Source of the DNA: Burkholderiales bacterium
GTDB lineage: Bacteria > Pseudomonadota > Gammaproteobacteria > Burkholderiales > Burkholderiaceae_D
Assembly (NCBI GenBank): GCA_016197345.1
Contig: JACPVY010000467.1
Location: 1 to 11,020, forward strand
Direction of reading: 5' to 3'
Length of the DNA stretch: 11,020 bases
The first letter of the stretch is position 1. Every line of letters starts with the position of its first letter. The notes beneath the pieces were generated by a model, which had not been told where the DNA came from, did not search any database, and was given only the letters and a program-made list of their open reading frames with translations. Shown here piece after piece: positions 1-10,546 of the stretch. Both the position numbers and the translations under genes were made by a program.

Positions 1-384
1 AAAGCAGGCGATATGCCTTTTGACATCGTGATCGCTTCGCCAGACACCATGCGTATCGTCGGTACCTTGGGTCAAATCCTCGGTCCACGCGGTTTGATGC
101 CTAACCCAAAAGTTGGCACCGTGACCCCAGACGTCGCTACCGCAGTGAAAAATGCAAAAGCTGGTCAAGTGCAATATCGTACCGACAAAAACGGTATCAT
201 TCACTCGACTATCGGCCGTAAATCGTTCACTGAAGAACAACTCAAAACTAACTTGGTTGCTCTGATTGAAGCGTTGAACAAAGCTAAACCAGCATCTTCC
301 AAAGGCGTGTATATGCGCAAAGTGTCGATTTCTTCGACCATGGGCATTGGTGTACGTCTGGATCAAGCTTCTTTGGCAGCGTAA
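1..384 (+). CDS. rplA: 50S ribosomal protein L1, C-terminal part (5' end outside the window)
   Basis: L1 binds 23S rRNA at the mobile L1 stalk, helps release deacylated tRNA from the E site, and in many bacteria represses its own operon by binding the rplK-rplA mRNA. The frame is open from base 1 (AAA GCA GGC GAT ATG), so the first ATG at 13 is internal and not the start. The 127 visible residues should be about residues 105-231 of a usual 231-residue protein. They carry the L1 family signature around [20 protein letters not shown], followed by [10 protein letters not shown], and the normal C-terminal stretch [21 protein letters not shown]. The TAA stop is at 382-384. The gene is the end of the rplK-rplA unit directly upstream of rplJ. 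No anomaly is seen in the visible part. Confidence 0.97.
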
Positions 385-695: not shown

Positions 696-701
696 TTGAC
701 C

Positions 702-1202
702 GTGAGTCTCGATCTGAATGGCAAAAAGGCCGTTGTAGCCGAAGTTACTGCGCAAGTTGCAAAAGCGCAAACTATCGTCGTGGCCGAATACCGTGGCATC
801 CAGGTTAGTCACTTGACGCAACTGCGTGCAAAAGCGCGTACCCAAGGTGTGTACCTGCGTGTGTTGAAAAACACGCTCGCTCGTCGCTCCGTGGATGGTA
901 CGCAATTTGCCAGCCTGTCCAATGAAATGACCGGTCCATTGATTTATGCAATTTCGGAAGATGCTGTTGCTGCGGCAAAAGTCATCGCTGATTTCGCAAA
1001 AACCAATGACAAATTGGTCGTGAAGGCAGGTAACTACGCTGGTAAATCGCTCGATAAAGCGGGCGTGGTAGCGTTGGCAAGTATCCCAAGCCGCGAAGTG
1101 CTGTTGGCCCAATTGGCCGGCATTATGCAAGCACCTGTGTCTGCATTTGCACGTGGTTTGGCTGCTTTGGCAGCAAAGAAAGAAGCTCCAGCAGAAGCGT
1201 AA
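702..1202 (+). CDS. rplJ: 50S ribosomal protein L10
   Basis: L10 anchors the L7/L12 dimers to 23S rRNA at the base of the ribosomal stalk and, with them, represses its own mRNA leader. The 166-residue product matches the usual family length of about 165. It has the N-terminal rRNA-binding domain ([26 protein letters not shown], split here as [16 protein letters not shown] and [10 protein letters not shown]), then [16 protein letters not shown], and an Ala-rich C-terminal helix ([20 protein letters not shown]) that docks L7/L12 dimers. The start is GTG at 702, with GGAGG 6 nt upstream. The stop is TAA at 1200-1202, and rplL begins 71 nt later. The 71-nt gap contains a T-run (about 1215-1221) and a weak hairpin TTATT/AATAA (1246-1260), but nothing I would call a terminator. 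Confidence 0.97.
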
Positions 1203-1273: not shown

Positions 1274-1654
1274 ATGGCAATTAGCAAAGAAGATATCTTG
1301 GAAGCAGTTGGTGCGATGTCCGTAATGGAATTGCATGACTTGGTTAAAGAATTCGAAACCAAATTTGGCGTGTCCGCAGCTGCAATGGCAGTTGGTACTG
1401 GCGGCGGCGGTGGCGACACCGGTGCAGCTAAAGCTGAAGAACAAACTGAATTCACCGTGATCTTGGCTGATTTCGGCGCGAACAAAGTTTCCGTCATTAA
1501 AGCAGTTCGCGAAATCACCGGTCTGGGCTTGAAAGAAGCTAAAGACTTGGTGGATGGCGCACCAAAACCATTGAAAGAAGGCATCTCGAAAGCTGATGCT
1601 GAAGCAGCTAAGAAGAAGTTGGAAGAAGCAGGCGCGAAAGCAGAAATCAAGTAA
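1274..1654 (+). CDS. rplL: 50S ribosomal protein L7/L12
   Basis: L7/L12 is the multicopy stalk protein that recruits and stimulates the translational GTPases EF-Tu, EF-G, IF2 and RF3. The product is 126 residues, slightly longer than the 121 of E. coli. The N-terminal dimerisation domain is about residues 1-33 ([20 protein letters not shown] onward). A flexible Ala/Gly-rich hinge follows at about 34-55, containing a run of five glycines ([16 protein letters not shown]). The C-terminal factor-binding domain is about 56-126, with the conserved [20 protein letters not shown] and [13 protein letters not shown] segments. AGGAG (1263-1267) lies 6 nt before ATG 1274, and TAA ends the gene at 1654. 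It is cotranscribed with rplJ and normally made at a 4:1 or higher ratio to L10. Confidence 0.97.
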
Positions 1655-1937: not shown

Positions 1938-4481
1938 ATGCACTACTCATTTACTGAGAAGAAGCGCATTCGCAAATCATTCGCAAAGCGCGCTAACGTT
2001 CACCACGTTCCGTTCCTGCTGGCGACCCAGCTCGAGTCGTATACGAGCTTTTTGCAAGCGGACAATCCACCGTCCTTGCGCAAAAATGAGGGTTTACAGT
2101 CGGCCTTCACATCCATCTTTCCAATTGTCTCGCACAATGGCTTCGCGCGGCTGGAATTTTTATCATATGTATTAGGCGACCCACCTTTTGACGTGAAAGA
2201 ATGTCAACAGCGTGGCTTGACCTTTGCATCGCCTCTGCGTGCTAAGGTGCGGCTGGTGATTCTCGACAAAGAATCCCCAACCAAGCCAGTCGTGAAGGAA
2301 ATGAAAGAGCAAGAAGTTTACATGGGCGAATTGCCTTTGATGACTTCGACTGGTTCTTTCGTCATCAACGGTACTGAGCGTGTTATCGTTTCTCAGTTGC
2401 ATCGTTCCCCTGGTGTGTTCTTCGAACATGACCGTGGCAAAACCCATTCCTCGGGCAAGTTGTTGTTTTCTGCCCGTATCATTCCATACCGTGGTTCATG
2501 GTTGGACTTTGAGTTTGACCCGAAAGACATCTTGTTCTTCCGCGTCGATCGTCGCCGCAAAATGCCAGTGACGATTTTGCTCAAAGCCATCGGCATGTCG
2601 CACGAGCAAATTTTGGCGAACTTCTTCGTCTTCGATAATTTCATGCTGCGCTCTGACGGCGGCGAAATGGAATTCGTTGCCGAACGTTTGCGTGGTGAAG
2701 TCGCGCGTTTTGACATCGTTGACAAAACGGGCAAAACCATCGTCACCAAAGATAAGCGTATCAATTCCCGCCATGTGCGCGATATTGAAGGCGCAGGTAT
2801 CAAATATATTTCCGTACCAGAAGATTATTTGTTGGGTCGCGTGCTGGCCACCAATGTCGTCAATCCTGACACCGGTGAAATCGTCGCTAACGCCAATGAT
2901 GAGTTGACCGAAGAAGTATTGGCAAACTTGCGCGAAGCACGCGTGACCGATATCCAAACCTTGTACACCAATGATTTGGATCAAGGTGGCTATATCTCGC
3001 AAACCTTGCGCATGGATGACACCACTGACCAAGTCGCTGCGAAGATCGCGATTTATCGCATGATGCGCCCAGGCGAGCCACCAACCGAGGAATCGGTGGA
3101 AGCCTTGTTCAATGGCTTGTTCTATAGCGCAGAACGCTATGATTTGTCGGCTGTTGGTCGTATGAAGTTTAACCGTCGCATTGGTCGCGATGAGTTGACG
3201 GGCGACATGACTTTGTCGAACGAAGATATCTTGGCCGTCATCAAAATCTTGGTTGAGCTGCGCAATGGTCGCGGCGAAGTCGATGATATTGATCACTTGG
3301 GTAATCGTCGTGTGCGTTGCGTCGGTGAATTGGCAGAAAACCAATTCCGTGCAGGTTTGGTGCGTGTCGAACGTGCTGTCAAAGAACGTCTAGGCCAAGC
3401 CGAAACCGACAACCTGATGCCGCATGATTTGATCAACTCCAAGCCGATTTCGGCTGCAATTCGCGAGTTCTTCGGTTCTTCGCAGTTGTCTCAGTTTATG
3501 GATCAAACCAATCCGCTGTCGGAAATCACCCATAAGCGCCGTGTTTCGGCCCTTGGCCCCGGTGGTTTGACGCGTGAACGCGCTGGCTTTGAAGTACGTG
3601 ACGTGCATCCAACCCACTATGGTCGTGTGTGCCCGATTGAAACGCCTGAAGGTCCAAACATTGGTCTGATCAACTCGCTGGCGTTGTATGCTCGCTTGAA
3701 TGAATACGGCTTCTTGGAAACGCCATATCGTAAAGTAGAAAACAGCTTGGTGACGAACCAGATTGACTACTTGTCGGCGATTGAAGAAGGCCGCTATATC
3801 ATCGCGCAGGCGAATGCGACGATTGATAAAGATGGCCGTCTGTGCGACGAATTGGTGTCTTCGCGTGAAGCAGGCGAAACGATTTTGGTCTCGCCAGAAC
3901 GTATCCAATACATGGACGTGGCGCCAGGTCAGGTGGTGTCGGTTGCAGCTTCCTTGATTCCGTTCCTCGAACACGATGATGCGAACCGCGCATTGATGGG
4001 TGCCAACATGCAACGTCAAGCAGTACCTTGCTTGCGCCCGGAAAAAGCAGTGGTCGGTACCGGTATCGAACGTACGGTAGCAGTTGACTCCGGCACGACG
4101 GTGCAGGCAACCCGCGGCGGTATCGTGGATTACATCGATGCGGGCCGTGTTGTGATTCGCGTCAATGATGATGAAGCGATTGCAGGTGAAGTCGGCGTTG
4201 ATATTTACAACCTGATCAAATACACCCGTTCGAACCAAAACACCAATATCAACCAACGTCCTATCGTTCAAGTTGGTGACCGTGTTGCTAAGGGCGACGT
4301 GATTGCTGACGGCGCTTCGACCGATTTGGGCGAATTGGCTTTGGGTCAAAACATGTTGGTGGCATTTATGCCATGGAACGGTTTGAACTTCGAAGATTCG
4401 ATCTTGATCTCGGAAAAAGTGGTGGAAGACGACCGCTATACCTCGATATTTTATTTAATATTGCTCGTGACACCAAGCTAG
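1938..4481 (+). CDS. rpoB: RNA polymerase subunit beta, N-terminal part (rpoB broken by a frameshift)
   Basis: Beta forms, with beta', the catalytic core of RNA polymerase and carries the rifampicin pocket. The ATG at 1938 follows GGAG (1929-1932) by 5 nt and gives the typical start [18 protein letters not shown]. The frame is also open upstream to 1779, but that part is not RpoB-like. Residues 1-836 are intact and colinear with the family. The rifampicin cluster (about 512-540, [12 protein letters not shown] then [12 protein letters not shown]) keeps the sensitive residues D522, H532 and S537 (E. coli D516, H526, S531). The acidic [13 protein letters not shown] segment lies near the end. After DDRYTS at 4445 the homology stops. 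The frame then reads [11 protein letters not shown] and ends at TAG 4479-4481, where the family has about IHIEELTVVARDTKLG. The rest of the protein continues in the -1 frame (4463-6034). See the junction feature; an assembly error is likelier than a dead essential gene. Confidence 0.93.
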
Positions 4482-6034
4482 GCGCAGAAGAAATCACCCG
4501 TGATATCTCCAACTTGGCAGAAAACCAATTGGCACGTTTGGATGAATCCGGCATCGTCTATATCGGTGCTGAAGTGCAAGCTGGTGACACGCTGGTCGGT
4601 AAGGTAACGCCAAAAGGCGAAACCCAATTGACGCCAGAAGAAAAACTGTTGCGCGCGATCTTCGGTGAAAAAGCCTCAGACGTGAAAGACACCTCGCTGC
4701 GCGTGCCTTCGGGCATGGTCGGTACCGTGATCGACGTTCAAGTGTTTACTCGCGAAGGCATCCAACGCGACAAACGCGCACAGCAAATTATCGACGACGA
4801 GCTGAAACGCTATCGTTTGGATTTGAACGATCAGATGCGTATCGTTGAAGGCGATGCATTTGCCCGTTTGGAAAAAATGTTGATCGGCAAAGTTGTCAAT
4901 GGCGGCCCGAAAAAGCTGGCCAAAGGCGTGGCGATCACCAAAGAATATCTGGACGATTTGGACAAATACCACTGGTTCGACATCCGCCCAGCGGAAGACG
5001 ACGCAGCGGCAGCGTTGGAAGCGATCAAAGAATCTATCGCTGAAAAACGTCACCAATTCGATCTAGCGTTCGAAGAAAAACGTAAGAAACTGACGCAAGG
5101 CGATGAACTCCAGCCTGGCGTGCAGAAGATGGTGAAAGTGTACTTGGCCGTGAAACGTCGCTTGCAGTCTGGCGATAAGATGGCAGGTCGCCACGGTAAC
5201 AAGGGTGTGGTTTCCCGTATCGTGCCAGTTGAAGATATGCCTTACATGGCAGACGGCACCCCAGCAGACATCGTGTTGAACCCATTGGGCGTTCCTTCAC
5301 GGATGAACGTGGGTCAGATTTTGGAAACTCACTTAGGCTGGGCGGCAAAAGGCTTGGGCTTGCGTATCGGCGAAATGCTGAAAGCCAAAGCTGAAGTGGA
5401 AAAAGTACGCGGCTTCCTGAACACGATTTACAACGAAACCGGTAAAACTGAAGATCTAGACAGTTTCTCCGACGCTGAAATCATGGACTTGGCGAAGAAC
5501 CTGCGTAACGGTGTGCCATTTGCTACGCCAGTGTTTGACGGTGCGAACGAAGAAGAAATCTTGCGCATGCTCGATTTGGCCTATCCAGACCATATCGCTA
5601 AGCAATTGGGTATGACGCCTTCGAAAAACCAGGTCACGATGTATGACGGTCGTACTGGCGAATCTTTCGAACGTAAAGTCACCGTTGGCTATATGCACGT
5701 GCTGAAACTGCATCACTTGGTTGATGACAAGATGCATGCACGTTCCACTGGCCCTTACTCGCTCGTGACGCAGCAACCATTGGGCGGTAAAGCGCAATTC
5801 GGTGGCCAGCGCTTCGGTGAGATGGAGGTGTGGGCATTGGAAGCTTACGGCGCATCGTATGTGCTGCAAGAAATGTTGACCGTGAAGTCGGATGACGTCA
5901 ATGGCCGTACCAAAGTGTATGAAAACTTGGTCAAAGGTGATCATGTGATCGACGCTGGTATGCCAGAGTCCTTCAACGTGTTGGTGAAGGAAATCCGCTC
6001 GCTCGGTATCGACATCGACCTCGAAAGAGAATGA
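4373..6034 (+). CDS. rpoB: RNA polymerase subunit beta, C-terminal part (rpoB, -1 frame)
   Basis: This frame carries the remainder of beta. The first in-frame ATG is 4373, but 4373-4462 is out-of-frame rpoB sequence and not homologous protein. True RpoB sequence starts at 4463 ([18 protein letters not shown]) and runs to [18 protein letters not shown] and TGA at 6032-6034. It includes [32 protein letters not shown], the active-site segment [12 protein letters not shown] (K at codon 5177-5179 and K at 5201-5203, equivalent to E. coli K1065 and K1073), and the C-terminal [20 protein letters not shown] clamp-anchor region. Adding 836 residues before the junction, 9 missing and 523 after gives 1368, the length I expect for this group. 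No Shine-Dalgarno is apparent before ATG 4373 or near 4463, so independent translation is doubtful. Confidence 0.9.
4446..4462 (+). other. All-A/T junction that breaks the rpoB reading frame
   Basis: The 17 bases atattttatttaatatt contain no G or C and sit between CCTCG (4441-4445) and GCTCGTGACACC (from 4463). The family has nine codons here, roughly I-H-I-E-E-L-T-V-V (E. coli residues 831-839), or 27 nt. Ten nucleotides are therefore missing and the frame shifts by -1. The tract has a 5-bp inverted repeat (ATATT 4446-4450, AATAT 4457-4461). Neither frame encodes anything like the conserved peptide. The true foreign core may be slightly shorter, because the first AT and last TT could be native (ATC and GTT codons). 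Confidence 0.9.
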
Positions 6035-6301: not shown

Positions 6302-9300
6302 ATGAAAGCACTGCTCGATCTATTCAAGCAAGTTCAGCAAACCGAAGTATTCGACGCGATCAAGATTGGTCTGGCGTCCCCTGAAAAAATCCGTTCGTGG
6401 TCCTACGGCGAAGTGAAAAAGCCGGAAACCATCAACTACCGCACCTTCAAGCCAGAACGTGACGGCCTGTTTTGCGCCAAAATTTTTGGCCCTATCAAAG
6501 ATTACGAATGCCTGTGCGGCAAATATAAGCGCTTGAAACATCGCGGTGTGATCTGCGAAAAATGCGGCGTTGAAGTGACCTTGGCCAAAGTGCGTCGTGA
6601 ACGCATGGGCCACATCGAATTGGCATCCCCTACTGCGCATATCTGGTTCTTGAAATCCTTGCCATCCCGTTTGGGTATGGTGCTGGACATGACCTTGCGT
6701 GATATCGAACGCGTTTTGTATTTTGAAGCATATGTTGTGACCGATCCTGGCATGACCCCGCTGAAAAAATGCCAAATCATGTCGGAAGACGACTACGCTG
6801 CTAAGTACGAAGAATACGGCGATGATTTCACCGCATTCATGGGCGCCGAAGGTATCCGTGAATTGCTGCGCTCGATCGACATTCACCGCGATGCAGAAAC
6901 CTTGCGCGTCGAATTGCGTGAATCGAAATCCGAAGCCAAGATCAAGAAATACGCTAAGCGTCTGAAAGTATTGGAAGCATTCCAACGTTCCGGCATCAAG
7001 CCAGAATGGATGATCATGGAAGTGTTGCCAGTGTTGCCACCAGAGTTGCGCCCATTGGTGCCACTCGATGGCGGCCGCTTTGCGACCTCTGATTTGAATG
7101 ACTTGTATCGCCGCGTCATCAACCGTAACAACCGTTTGAAGCGCTTGATGGAATTGCGCGCACCGGAAATCATCACCCGCAATGAAAAGCGGATGTTGCA
7201 AGAAGCGGTTGACTCCTTGCTCGATAACGGCCGTCGCGGTAAGGCTATGACTGGCGCGAATAAGCGTCCGTTGAAATCCTTGGCTGAGATGATCAAAGGT
7301 AAGGGTGGTCGTTTCCGTCAAAACTTGCTGGGTAAGCGCGTCGATTACTCGGGTCGTTCCGTCATCGTGGTGGGGCCACAGTTGAAATTGCATCAATGCG
7401 GCTTGCCAAAATTGATGGCTTTGGAATTGTTCAAACCATTCATTTTCAATAAATTGGAATTGATGGGCTTGGCGACCACGATTAAAGCAGCGAAGAAATT
7501 GGTGGAAGTGCAAGAGCCAGTGGTGTGGGATATTCTGGAAGAAGTCATCCGCGAACATCCAGTCATGCTGAACCGCGCACCGACCTTGCATCGCTTAGGT
7601 ATTCAAGCATTTGAACCTGTGCTGATCGAAGGTAAAGCAATTCAACTGCATCCACTGGTTTGCGCCGCATTTAACGCCGACTTTGACGGCGATCAAATGG
7701 CGGTGCACGTACCATTGTCGATTGAAGCGCAGATGGAATCGCGTACCTTGATGTTGGCATCGAACAATATTTTGTTCCCATCGAACGGCGAACCGTCGAT
7801 CGTGCCTTCACAAGATATCGTGTTGGGTCTGTACTATGCGACCCGCGAAAAAATCAACGGCAAAAACGAAGGGATGTTGTTCCCTGACGTGTCCGAAGTG
7901 ATTCGCGCTTACGACAACAAAGAAGTCGAACTGACGACCCGTATCACGGTGCGTATCGTCGAATATCCGAAGAACCCAGTCACGCATGAATTCGAACGCA
8001 CTGTCACGCGTTACGAAACCACCGTTGGCCGTTCGATTTTGTCGGAAATTCTGCCAAAAGGTTTGCCATTCTCGGTGCTGAACCGCGCCTTGAAGAAAAA
8101 AGAAATTTCGAAGTTGATCAACACCTCAGTCCGTAAGTGCGGCTTGCACGCGACGGTAATCTTCGCTGATAAATTGATGCAGTCCGGTTTCCGCTTGGCG
8201 ACTCGTGCTGGTATCTCGATCTGCGTCGACGATATGTTGGTACCACCACAAAAAGTGACCTTGATCGCTGCTGCTGAGCAAGAAGTGAAACAGATCGAAC
8301 AGCAATATGCTTCCGGTCTGGTGACCTCCGGCGAACGCTATAACAAAGTGGTCGATATTTGGGGTAAAGCCGGTGATGAAGTCGGTAAGGCGATGATGGA
8401 CCAGCTCAAAGTGGAAGACGTCATCAAACGTGACGGCACCCACTCGCAGCAAGAATCGTTTAACGCGATTTACATGATGGCTGACTCCGGTGCGCGTGGT
8501 AGTGCAGCCCAGATTCGTCAGTTGGCAGGTATGCGTGGTCTGATGGCGAAACCGGACGGTTCGATTATCGAAACGCCGATTACCGCGAACTTCCGCGAAG
8601 GTCTGAACGTTCTGCAGTACTTTATTTCTACTCATGGAGCACGGAAGGGCTTGGCCGACACCGCATTGAAGACAGCGAACTCCGGTTACTTGACGCGTCG
8701 TCTGGTTGACGTGACACAAGATTTGGTCGTGATTGAAGATGATTGCGGTACCGTCAACGGCGCTGCAATGAAGGCGATGGTTGAAGGCGGTGAAGTGATC
8801 GAAGCCTTGCGCGATCGTATCCTCGGCCGTGTTGCTGCGACCGACATCATTCATCCAGAAACCCAAGCGACCTTGTACGCTGCGGGCGAGTTGCTGGACG
8901 AAGACATGGTGGAAGAAATCGAACGCCTGTCTATCGACGAAGTGAAAGTACGTACCCCACTGACTTGCGACACCCGCTATGGTCTGTGCGCGAAATGCTA
9001 TGGCCGCGATTTGGGCCGTGGTGTGTTGGTCAATGCCGGTGAAGCAGTTGGTGTGATCGCAGCGCAGTCGATTGGTGAACCAGGTACCCAGTTGACGATG
9101 CGTACCTTCCACATCGGTGGTGCGGCATCGCGTGCAGCAGTGGCTAGCTCGGTCGAAGCGAAATCGAACGGTACTATCCGGTTCACTTCGACCATGCGCT
9201 ATGTGACCAACGGCAAAGGCAACCAAATCGTGATTTCGCGTTCTGGCGAAGTCTTGATTACGGATGACCATGGCCGCGAACGCGAACGCCATAAAGTGCC

Positions 9301-10546
9301 TTACGGTGCAACCTTGATCGTCAAAGACGGCATGGTGATCCGCGCTGGTACGGCATTGGCAACGTGGGACCCATTGACCCGTCCGATTATTACTGAATAC
9401 TCCGGTACGGTGCGTTTTGAAAACGTCGAAGAAGGCGTGACCGTTGCACGTCAAGTCGATGATGTGACGGGTCTGTCGACCTTGGTCGCCATTGATGCGA
9501 AACGTCGCGGTACTTCGACCGGTAAGAGCTTGCGTCCGCAAGTCAAACTGTTGAACGAAGCAGGCGAAGAAGTGAAAATCGCTGGCACCGAACACTCGGT
9601 GACGATTGGCTTCCAAGTCGGCGCGCTGATCACCGTGAAAGACGGCCAGCAAGTGACGGTGGGTGAAGTGCTGGCACGTATCCCAACCGAATCGCAGAAA
9701 ACCCGTGATATTACCGGTGGTCTGCCACGCGTTGCTGAACTGTTTGAAGCACGTTCGCCAAAAGATGCAGGTATGTTGGCTGAAGTGACTGGTACCGTGG
9801 CGTTTGGTAAAGAAACCAAGGGCAAACAGCGTCTGGAAATCACCGACATGGACGGCAACAAGCATGAGTTCTTGATCACCAAGGACAAACAAGTGCTGGT
9901 GCATGACGGCCAAGTTGTGAACAAAGGTGAGATGATTGTTGACGGCCCAGCCGATCCACAAGACATTCTGCGTTTGTTGGGGATCGAAGCGCTGGCACGC
10001 TATATCGTTGACGAAGTGCAGGACGTGTATCGTTTGCAAGGCGTGAAGATTAATGACAAGCACATCGAAGTGATCGTGCGTCAAATGCTGCGTCGCGTGC
10101 AAATCGTTGATGCTGGCGACACCGATTACATCGTCGGTGAACAAGTCGAACGTTCGGAATTGTTGGATCAAAATGATCGCGTTATCAGTGAAAACAAGAT
10201 TCCAGCAACCTACGAAAACGTCTTGTTAGGTATTACCAAAGCGTCGTTGTCGACCGATTCCTTCATCTCGGCAGCGTCGTTCCAGGAAACCACCCGCGTC
10301 TTGACCGAAGCCGCGATCATGGGCAAGAAAGACAGCCTGCGCGGCCTGAAAGAAAACGTCATCGTTGGTCGCTTGATCCCAGCAGGTACGGGCTTAGCGT
10401 TCCACCGTGCACGCAAAGAGAAAGAAAGCTGGGAAGCGGAAGAACGCACCGCCTTGCTGCAAGCTGAAAAGCTGGCACGCGCAGCGGAGCATGAAATCGC
10501 TGAAGCTGCTCATCTGGCAGCAGGGGCTGATCCGCTAGGGATGTAA
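6302..10546 (+). CDS. rpoC: RNA polymerase subunit beta'
   Basis: Beta' holds the catalytic magnesium and most of the DNA clamp. ATG 6302 follows GGAG with 6-nt spacing, and TAA is at 10544-10546. The 1414-residue product is full length and unbroken. Visible landmarks: the N-terminal zinc site C70, C72, C85, C88; the catalytic NADFDGD at 458-464 with D460, D462, D464; the bridge helix starting near 774 ([20 protein letters not shown]); the second zinc site C815, C889, C896, C899; and the trigger-loop start M933-R934-T935-F936-H937. These match E. coli numbering exactly or by +1. The C-terminus ends in an Ala-rich helix ([20 protein letters not shown]). The gene is 267 nt after rpoB, a long spacer for this pair (about 77 nt in E. 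coli, from memory). The strong terminator 20 nt downstream marks the end of the operon. Confidence 0.98.

What the first reader, a model, noticed from the sequence alone, without database searches (positions are those of the whole stretch)
4441..4481. rpoB interrupted by a 17-nt all-A/T segment that replaces nine conserved codons
Directly seen: RpoB is perfectly family-like through DDRYTS (4445) and again from ARDTKLG (4463) in the -1 frame, while the 17 bases between contain no G or C in a balanced-composition gene. The lengths fit: 836 + 9 + 523 = 1368 residues, so 27 nt were replaced by 17. This is not a homopolymer slip or a simple indel; it is a local replacement. Explanations in order of likelihood: (a) assembly or gap-closure error, (b) a real lesion in a duplicated or non-essential copy, (c) a real split beta subunit. 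The position (E. coli about 831-839) lies just after the conserved E813/D814 segment and is not one of the dispensable regions I recall as tolerating splits, which argues against (c).
Basis: partly seen in the sequence, partly recalled or inferred. Interest (0 to 1): 0.7.

Follow-up and report, generated by a model that had tools for sequence, protein, structure and literature searches.

The report
Assembly error inside rpoB gene
The essential RNA polymerase gene rpoB looks broken here by a short A/T-only patch, but this is most likely a local error in a fragmentary draft genome assembly rather than biology.

Summary
At 4446-4462 a 17-base all-A/T patch stands where relatives have nine codons (E. 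coli RpoB about 831-839). The frame is lost (net -10 bases) and the N half stops at 4479-4481. Both halves are otherwise open, similarly close to the same relatives, with coding signal up to the patch. Of 109 related loci examined, the 107 that reach the site keep exactly nine residues there; so do 236 of 240 listed database proteins, and the other 4 begin at or after the site. The window is one contig of a 675-contig, 68%-complete draft in which this is the only rpoB found. In 70 readable contigs (0.47 Mb) a frame-switch survey found three more breaks (acyl-CoA dehydrogenase, flgD, gspK/gspL) with internal sequence missing, though none has an A/T patch and all lie in contigs I had picked for A/T runs. 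A complete same-genus genome gave one unexamined candidate in 0.40 Mb. No slippery site, good internal start, nearby template or second copy supports a working split gene. No reads were available, so the error is inferred, not shown.

The parts
4446..4462 (+). 17-base all-A/T patch standing in place of nine codons; net loss of 10 bases and of the frame
1941..4481 (+). rpoB N-terminal part: 835 family-like residues to 4445, then an off-frame tail to the stop at 4479-4481
4463..6034 (+). rpoB C-terminal part, 523 residues from ARDTKLG, in the -1 frame
6302..10546 (+). rpoC, 1414 aa, uninterrupted (context)
1274..1654 (+). ribosomal protein L7/L12, uninterrupted (context)
696..1202 (+). ribosomal protein L10, uninterrupted (context)
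1..384 (+). ribosomal protein L1, C-terminal part, cut by the contig start (context)

Best explanation
The 17-base A/T patch is a local assembly or gap-closing error in a fragmentary draft genome of an Oxalobacteraceae bacterium. The organism itself most likely carries an ordinary, uninterrupted rpoB. Shown: the patch, the frame loss, conservation of the site in each examined relative that reaches it, a single rpoB found in the draft, and other broken genes in the same draft. Inferred: that the draft is a metagenome or similar assembly, and that the assembler or a gap filler wrote unsupported bases across a badly covered spot.
For: The contig is one of 675 in a 2.995 Mb, 68.17%-complete draft. 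One N half and one C half are found in it, both at this place. Of 109 related loci (80 kept of at least 597, plus 29), 107 reach the site and have exactly nine residues there: 106 by pattern and L037 by eye; the matches in L033 and L053 end at their contig ends before the site. Of 240 listed proteins (the best 120 of each of two searches), 235 match by pattern and P0081 by eye; 4 begin at or after the site. Coding signal runs up to the patch in both frames. Both halves have similar GC3 (0.565, 0.581), largely the same nearest relatives, and similar DNA identity to the same-genus genome (84.5% over the last 1545 bases of the N half, 83.2% over the C half), so this is one gene with a local fault rather than a two-species join. 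The frame survey finds further breaks on C16, C30 and C40. FlgD jumps from profile position 55 to 120 of 197; GspK stops matching at 259 of 307 and GspL begins at 45 of 392. The acyl-CoA dehydrogenase region has 34 bases between two aligned blocks where the same-genus genome has 381. PMC7111523 (passages read) describes local assembly errors unsupported by any read as a known class in draft metagenome genomes and a source of wrong protein sequences in databases.
Against: No reads could be examined. The other three breaks are losses of roughly 200-350 bases without an A/T patch, so they are not the same lesion type, and real deletions in those genes are not excluded. All three lie in the 14 contigs fetched because they hold A/T runs (82 kb); none appeared in the 55 other readable contigs besides the window's own. 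The control genome gave one candidate in 400 kb, not examined. The two short N runs found (2 and 24 bases) may be scaffold gaps but may also be masking by the operators. The nine other isolated A/T runs that I looked at in this draft read by eye as ordinary codons or intergenic DNA, so A/T filler is not a general habit of the assembly.
Confidence: 0.92

Rival explanations
1. A real lesion in this rpoB copy, with an intact copy elsewhere in the genome (missing from the draft) or in the rest of the population.
For: The draft is only 68% complete, so a second copy could be missing. In one search, two of 59 relatives (G008, G035) give two long matches to the 500-base probe on separate contigs, not followed up; a third, G037, gives two complementary pieces.
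Against: No second match in the held part. This copy sits in the standard rplA-rplJ-rplL-rpoB-rpoC order with uninterrupted neighbours and no other visible damage.
Confidence: 0.05
2. A real split beta subunit made as two polypeptides.
For: Both halves are open and conserved on either side of the patch. The C-half frame has an ATG at 4373 with a GGTGG 11-15 bases before it.
Against: Nine residues kept in all 107 examined loci that reach the site would be absent from both pieces. The ATG at 4373 would add 30 off-frame residues; the next starts (ATG, GTG or TTG) in that frame lie from 4514 on, inside conserved sequence. The site follows the conserved NFED segment. That splits are tolerated mainly in dispensable regions is recalled; paper searches (no paper; seven listed, none opened) gave nothing used.
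Confidence: 0.01
3. A real gene rescued by programmed frameshifting or bypassing.
For: The C half follows in the -1 frame with an overlap.
Against: No X XXY YYZ heptamer starts in 4374-4481. The product would still lack the conserved residues, and none of the examined relatives shows the arrangement.
Confidence: 0.01

Closest known systems
Bacterial RpoB (Pfam RNA_pol_Rpb2_1, _2, _3, _45, _6, _7)
   Same: Both halves carry the family's domains in order; Rpb2_6 is cut at the patch, profile positions to 105 in the N half and from 111 in the C half
   Different: Nine codons are replaced by 17 A/T bases and the frame is lost
Local assembly errors in metagenome-assembled genomes (PMC7111523, passages read)
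   Same: Short wrong consensus inside a coding gene of a draft genome, flanked by correct sequence
   Different: The defining sign, no read supporting the consensus, could not be tested here

Membership tests
Local assembly error in a draft genome | Consensus in the region lacks support by even one read | not testable with these tools
   no reads held; definition from PMC7111523, passages read
Local assembly error in a draft genome | Relatives lack the lesion | tested here: met
   107 of 109 loci reach the site and all 107 lack it; 236 of 240 proteins lack it and 4 begin at or after the site
Local assembly error in a draft genome | Other faulty joins in the same assembly | tested here: inconclusive
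   three further breaks in 70 readable contigs, but of another form, all in A/T-selected contigs, and real deletions are not excluded
Duplicated rpoB with one decayed copy | A second rpoB in the genome | tested here: not met
   single matches in the 68%-complete draft
Naturally split beta subunit | Own start signals for the C-terminal part | tested here: inconclusive
   one ATG at 4373 with a weak upstream GGTGG
Naturally split beta subunit | No loss of conserved residues at the split | tested here: not met
   nine residues lost that all 107 examined loci reaching the site keep
Programmed -1 frameshift | Slippery heptamer before the zero-frame stop | tested here: not met

The most novel reading that the evidence does not exclude
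A living bacterium whose only rpoB is interrupted in a highly conserved domain and is expressed as two beta fragments lacking nine otherwise conserved residues.
Probability: 0.01. Interest if true: 0.9.

Novelty: not a real feature. Interest (0 to 1): 0.06.

Why it matters
If the patch were real it would overturn what is known about an essential enzyme. As an artefact it matters only as a warning: gene breaks in fragmentary drafts, even inside marker genes such as rpoB, should be checked against reads before they are read as biology.

Tried and rejected
Adapter trimming: a few of the listed C-half proteins begin near this site, one (P0158) with residues LFRS that I recall as translated Illumina adapter. 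Three relatives' sites lie 3, 3 and 2 edits from the recalled 13-base adapter core (43, 28 and 2 of 1000 shuffles come as near), so there is a mild likeness; but distance 3 or less is found in 86 of 1097 tiles of the window, and this genome's own bases at the site are unknown. Counts of adapter-like words in the draft were too small to use. Not adopted, not excluded.

Shared k-mers between co-occurring species: the site is not a peak of DNA conservation among 33 relatives or of 21-mers shared with 28 loci. Rejected. G037 has its two matches on separate contigs that appear to meet near window 4408; noted only.

Templated insertion: the longest match of the patch elsewhere in the window is 9 bases (+) and 8 (-), at chance level. 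The exact 17-mer occurs once in the genome.

Patch as a degraded version of the family codons: its fit to 28 family segments is no better than shuffled patches (89 of 500 reach the mean, 119 of 500 the maximum), and its reverse complement scores the same. Rejected.

Two-species chimera: not supported, with the limit that the 109 full-length proteins compared came from the N-half search. A/T filler as a general habit of the assembly: of 47 runs of 14 or more in 58 contigs, 11 are isolated; of the 10 looked at, the nine besides rpoB read by eye as natural codons or intergenic sequence; L155 was not looked at. No same-species protein was seen in the listings: the best is 96% over the searched region. 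Of the 50 adjacent frame-switch pairs only the 4 that passed my cut (12 or more codons before a start) were examined. Structure prediction was not run; it would not decide the question.

Full report
What is there. The window is contig C127 of an unnamed draft genome: 675 contigs, 2,995,108 bases, 68.17% complete, 0.41% contamination. That it is a metagenome-type assembly is inferred from these figures. It holds rplA (cut by the contig start), rplJ, rplL, rpoB and rpoC in the usual order; the genes other than rpoB are uninterrupted. RpoB is family-like for 835 residues to 4445 and again for 523 residues from 4463 in the -1 frame. The 17 bases between, 4446-4462, are all A or T. The zero frame stops at 4479-4481. 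Against the same-genus genome the alignment of 4301-4620 is normal on both sides and has a 10-base gap only at the patch.

Is it more than chance. An all-A/T run of this length is only mildly unusual (22 of 400 shuffles of the window, 8 of 400 of rpoB, 4 of 400 codon shuffles). The next longest runs in rpoB are 10 and 9 bases. The striking part is the loss of conserved codons. I examined 109 related loci: the 80 kept of at least 597, and 29 of the relatives' matches. 107 reach the site and all have exactly nine residues between the conserved flanks (106 by pattern; L037 by eye; the matches in L033 and L053 end at their contig ends before the site). In the 240 listed proteins of two searches, which each scored about 8000 and listed 120, 235 match by pattern and P0081 by eye; P0142, P0158, P0160 and P0206 begin at or after the site. 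Query residue 834 aligns with residue 829 of the E. coli chain, so the patch stands at about 831-839.

What it is. Only one N half and one C half were found in the held genome, both here. Codon signal reaches the patch from both sides. P0001 ranks first for the N half and second for the C half among 109 full-length proteins (all gathered with the N half); GC3 is 0.565 and 0.581; DNA identity to the same-genus genome is 84.5% over the last 1545 bases of the N half and 83.2% over the C half. This looks like one gene with one local fault. An essential gene with an otherwise undamaged sequence and a frame-destroying fault in a highly conserved domain points to the assembly.

Is the assembly prone to faults. 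I took 102 contigs of the draft; 32 were masked, leaving 70 (469,562 bases). A frame-switch survey found four candidates: rpoB, and breaks on C16, C30 and C40. On C40, FlgD jumps from profile position 55 to 120 of 197. On C16, GspK stops matching at 259 of 307 and GspL begins at 45 of 392. On C30, an acyl-CoA dehydrogenase relative that is a single frame of 601-614 residues in the seven best-matching relatives has 34 bases between two aligned blocks where the same-genus genome has 381; its upstream piece matched no NCBIfam model and its downstream piece and the FlgD pieces score below the curated cut-offs, as pieces may. A control of 400,000 bases of the complete same-genus genome gave one candidate, not examined. 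Limits: the three further breaks are losses without an A/T patch, real deletions are not excluded, and all three lie in the 14 contigs (82,117 bases) that I had fetched for their A/T runs, with none in the 55 other contigs besides the window's own. The rate is not an unbiased estimate. Two contigs carry short N runs of 2 and 24 bases, either scaffold gaps or masking.

How it most likely arose. The assembler or a gap-filling step wrote unsupported bases across a badly covered spot. PMC7111523 (passages read) describes such errors as a known class, suspected to be prominent with one assembler and occasional with all, recognised by lack of support from any read, and says that leaving them uncorrected puts wrong protein sequences into databases. 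That step is inferred; no reads are held.

Rivals. A decayed second copy, a split subunit and a programmed frameshift were tested as far as possible and are unsupported, though the C-half frame does have one ATG at 4373 with a weak GGTGG before it. Adapter trimming, shared k-mers, local templating and degraded codons were tested as causes of the patch and not adopted.

Verdict. On checking I lowered its confidence from 0.93 to 0.92 and raised a real lesion from 0.04 to 0.05, because the N runs may be masking and the other breaks may be real deletions.

Noticed in passing
L139 (contig C30) near 1099: Acyl-CoA dehydrogenase relative broken by a frame-shifting loss of roughly 350 bases relative to the same-genus genome.
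   Followed up: partly
L141 (contig C40) near 6011: flgD broken with about 65 profile positions missing.
   Followed up: partly
L135 (contig C16) near 2598: gspK and gspL run into each other with the end of one and the start of the other missing.
   Followed up: partly
P0158: A C-terminal RpoB fragment standing for 33 member sequences begins MLFRS just before DTKLG, which looks like translated Illumina adapter (recalled), a possible database contaminant.
   Followed up: no
G008 and G035: Two relatives each give two long matches to the rpoB probe on separate contigs, either two rpoB genes or contamination.
   Followed up: no
L134, L136, L140, L145, L153 (contigs C8, C22, C31, C104, C6): Several contig ends in this draft are very A/T-rich, 13-22% G+C over 60 bases.
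   Followed up: no
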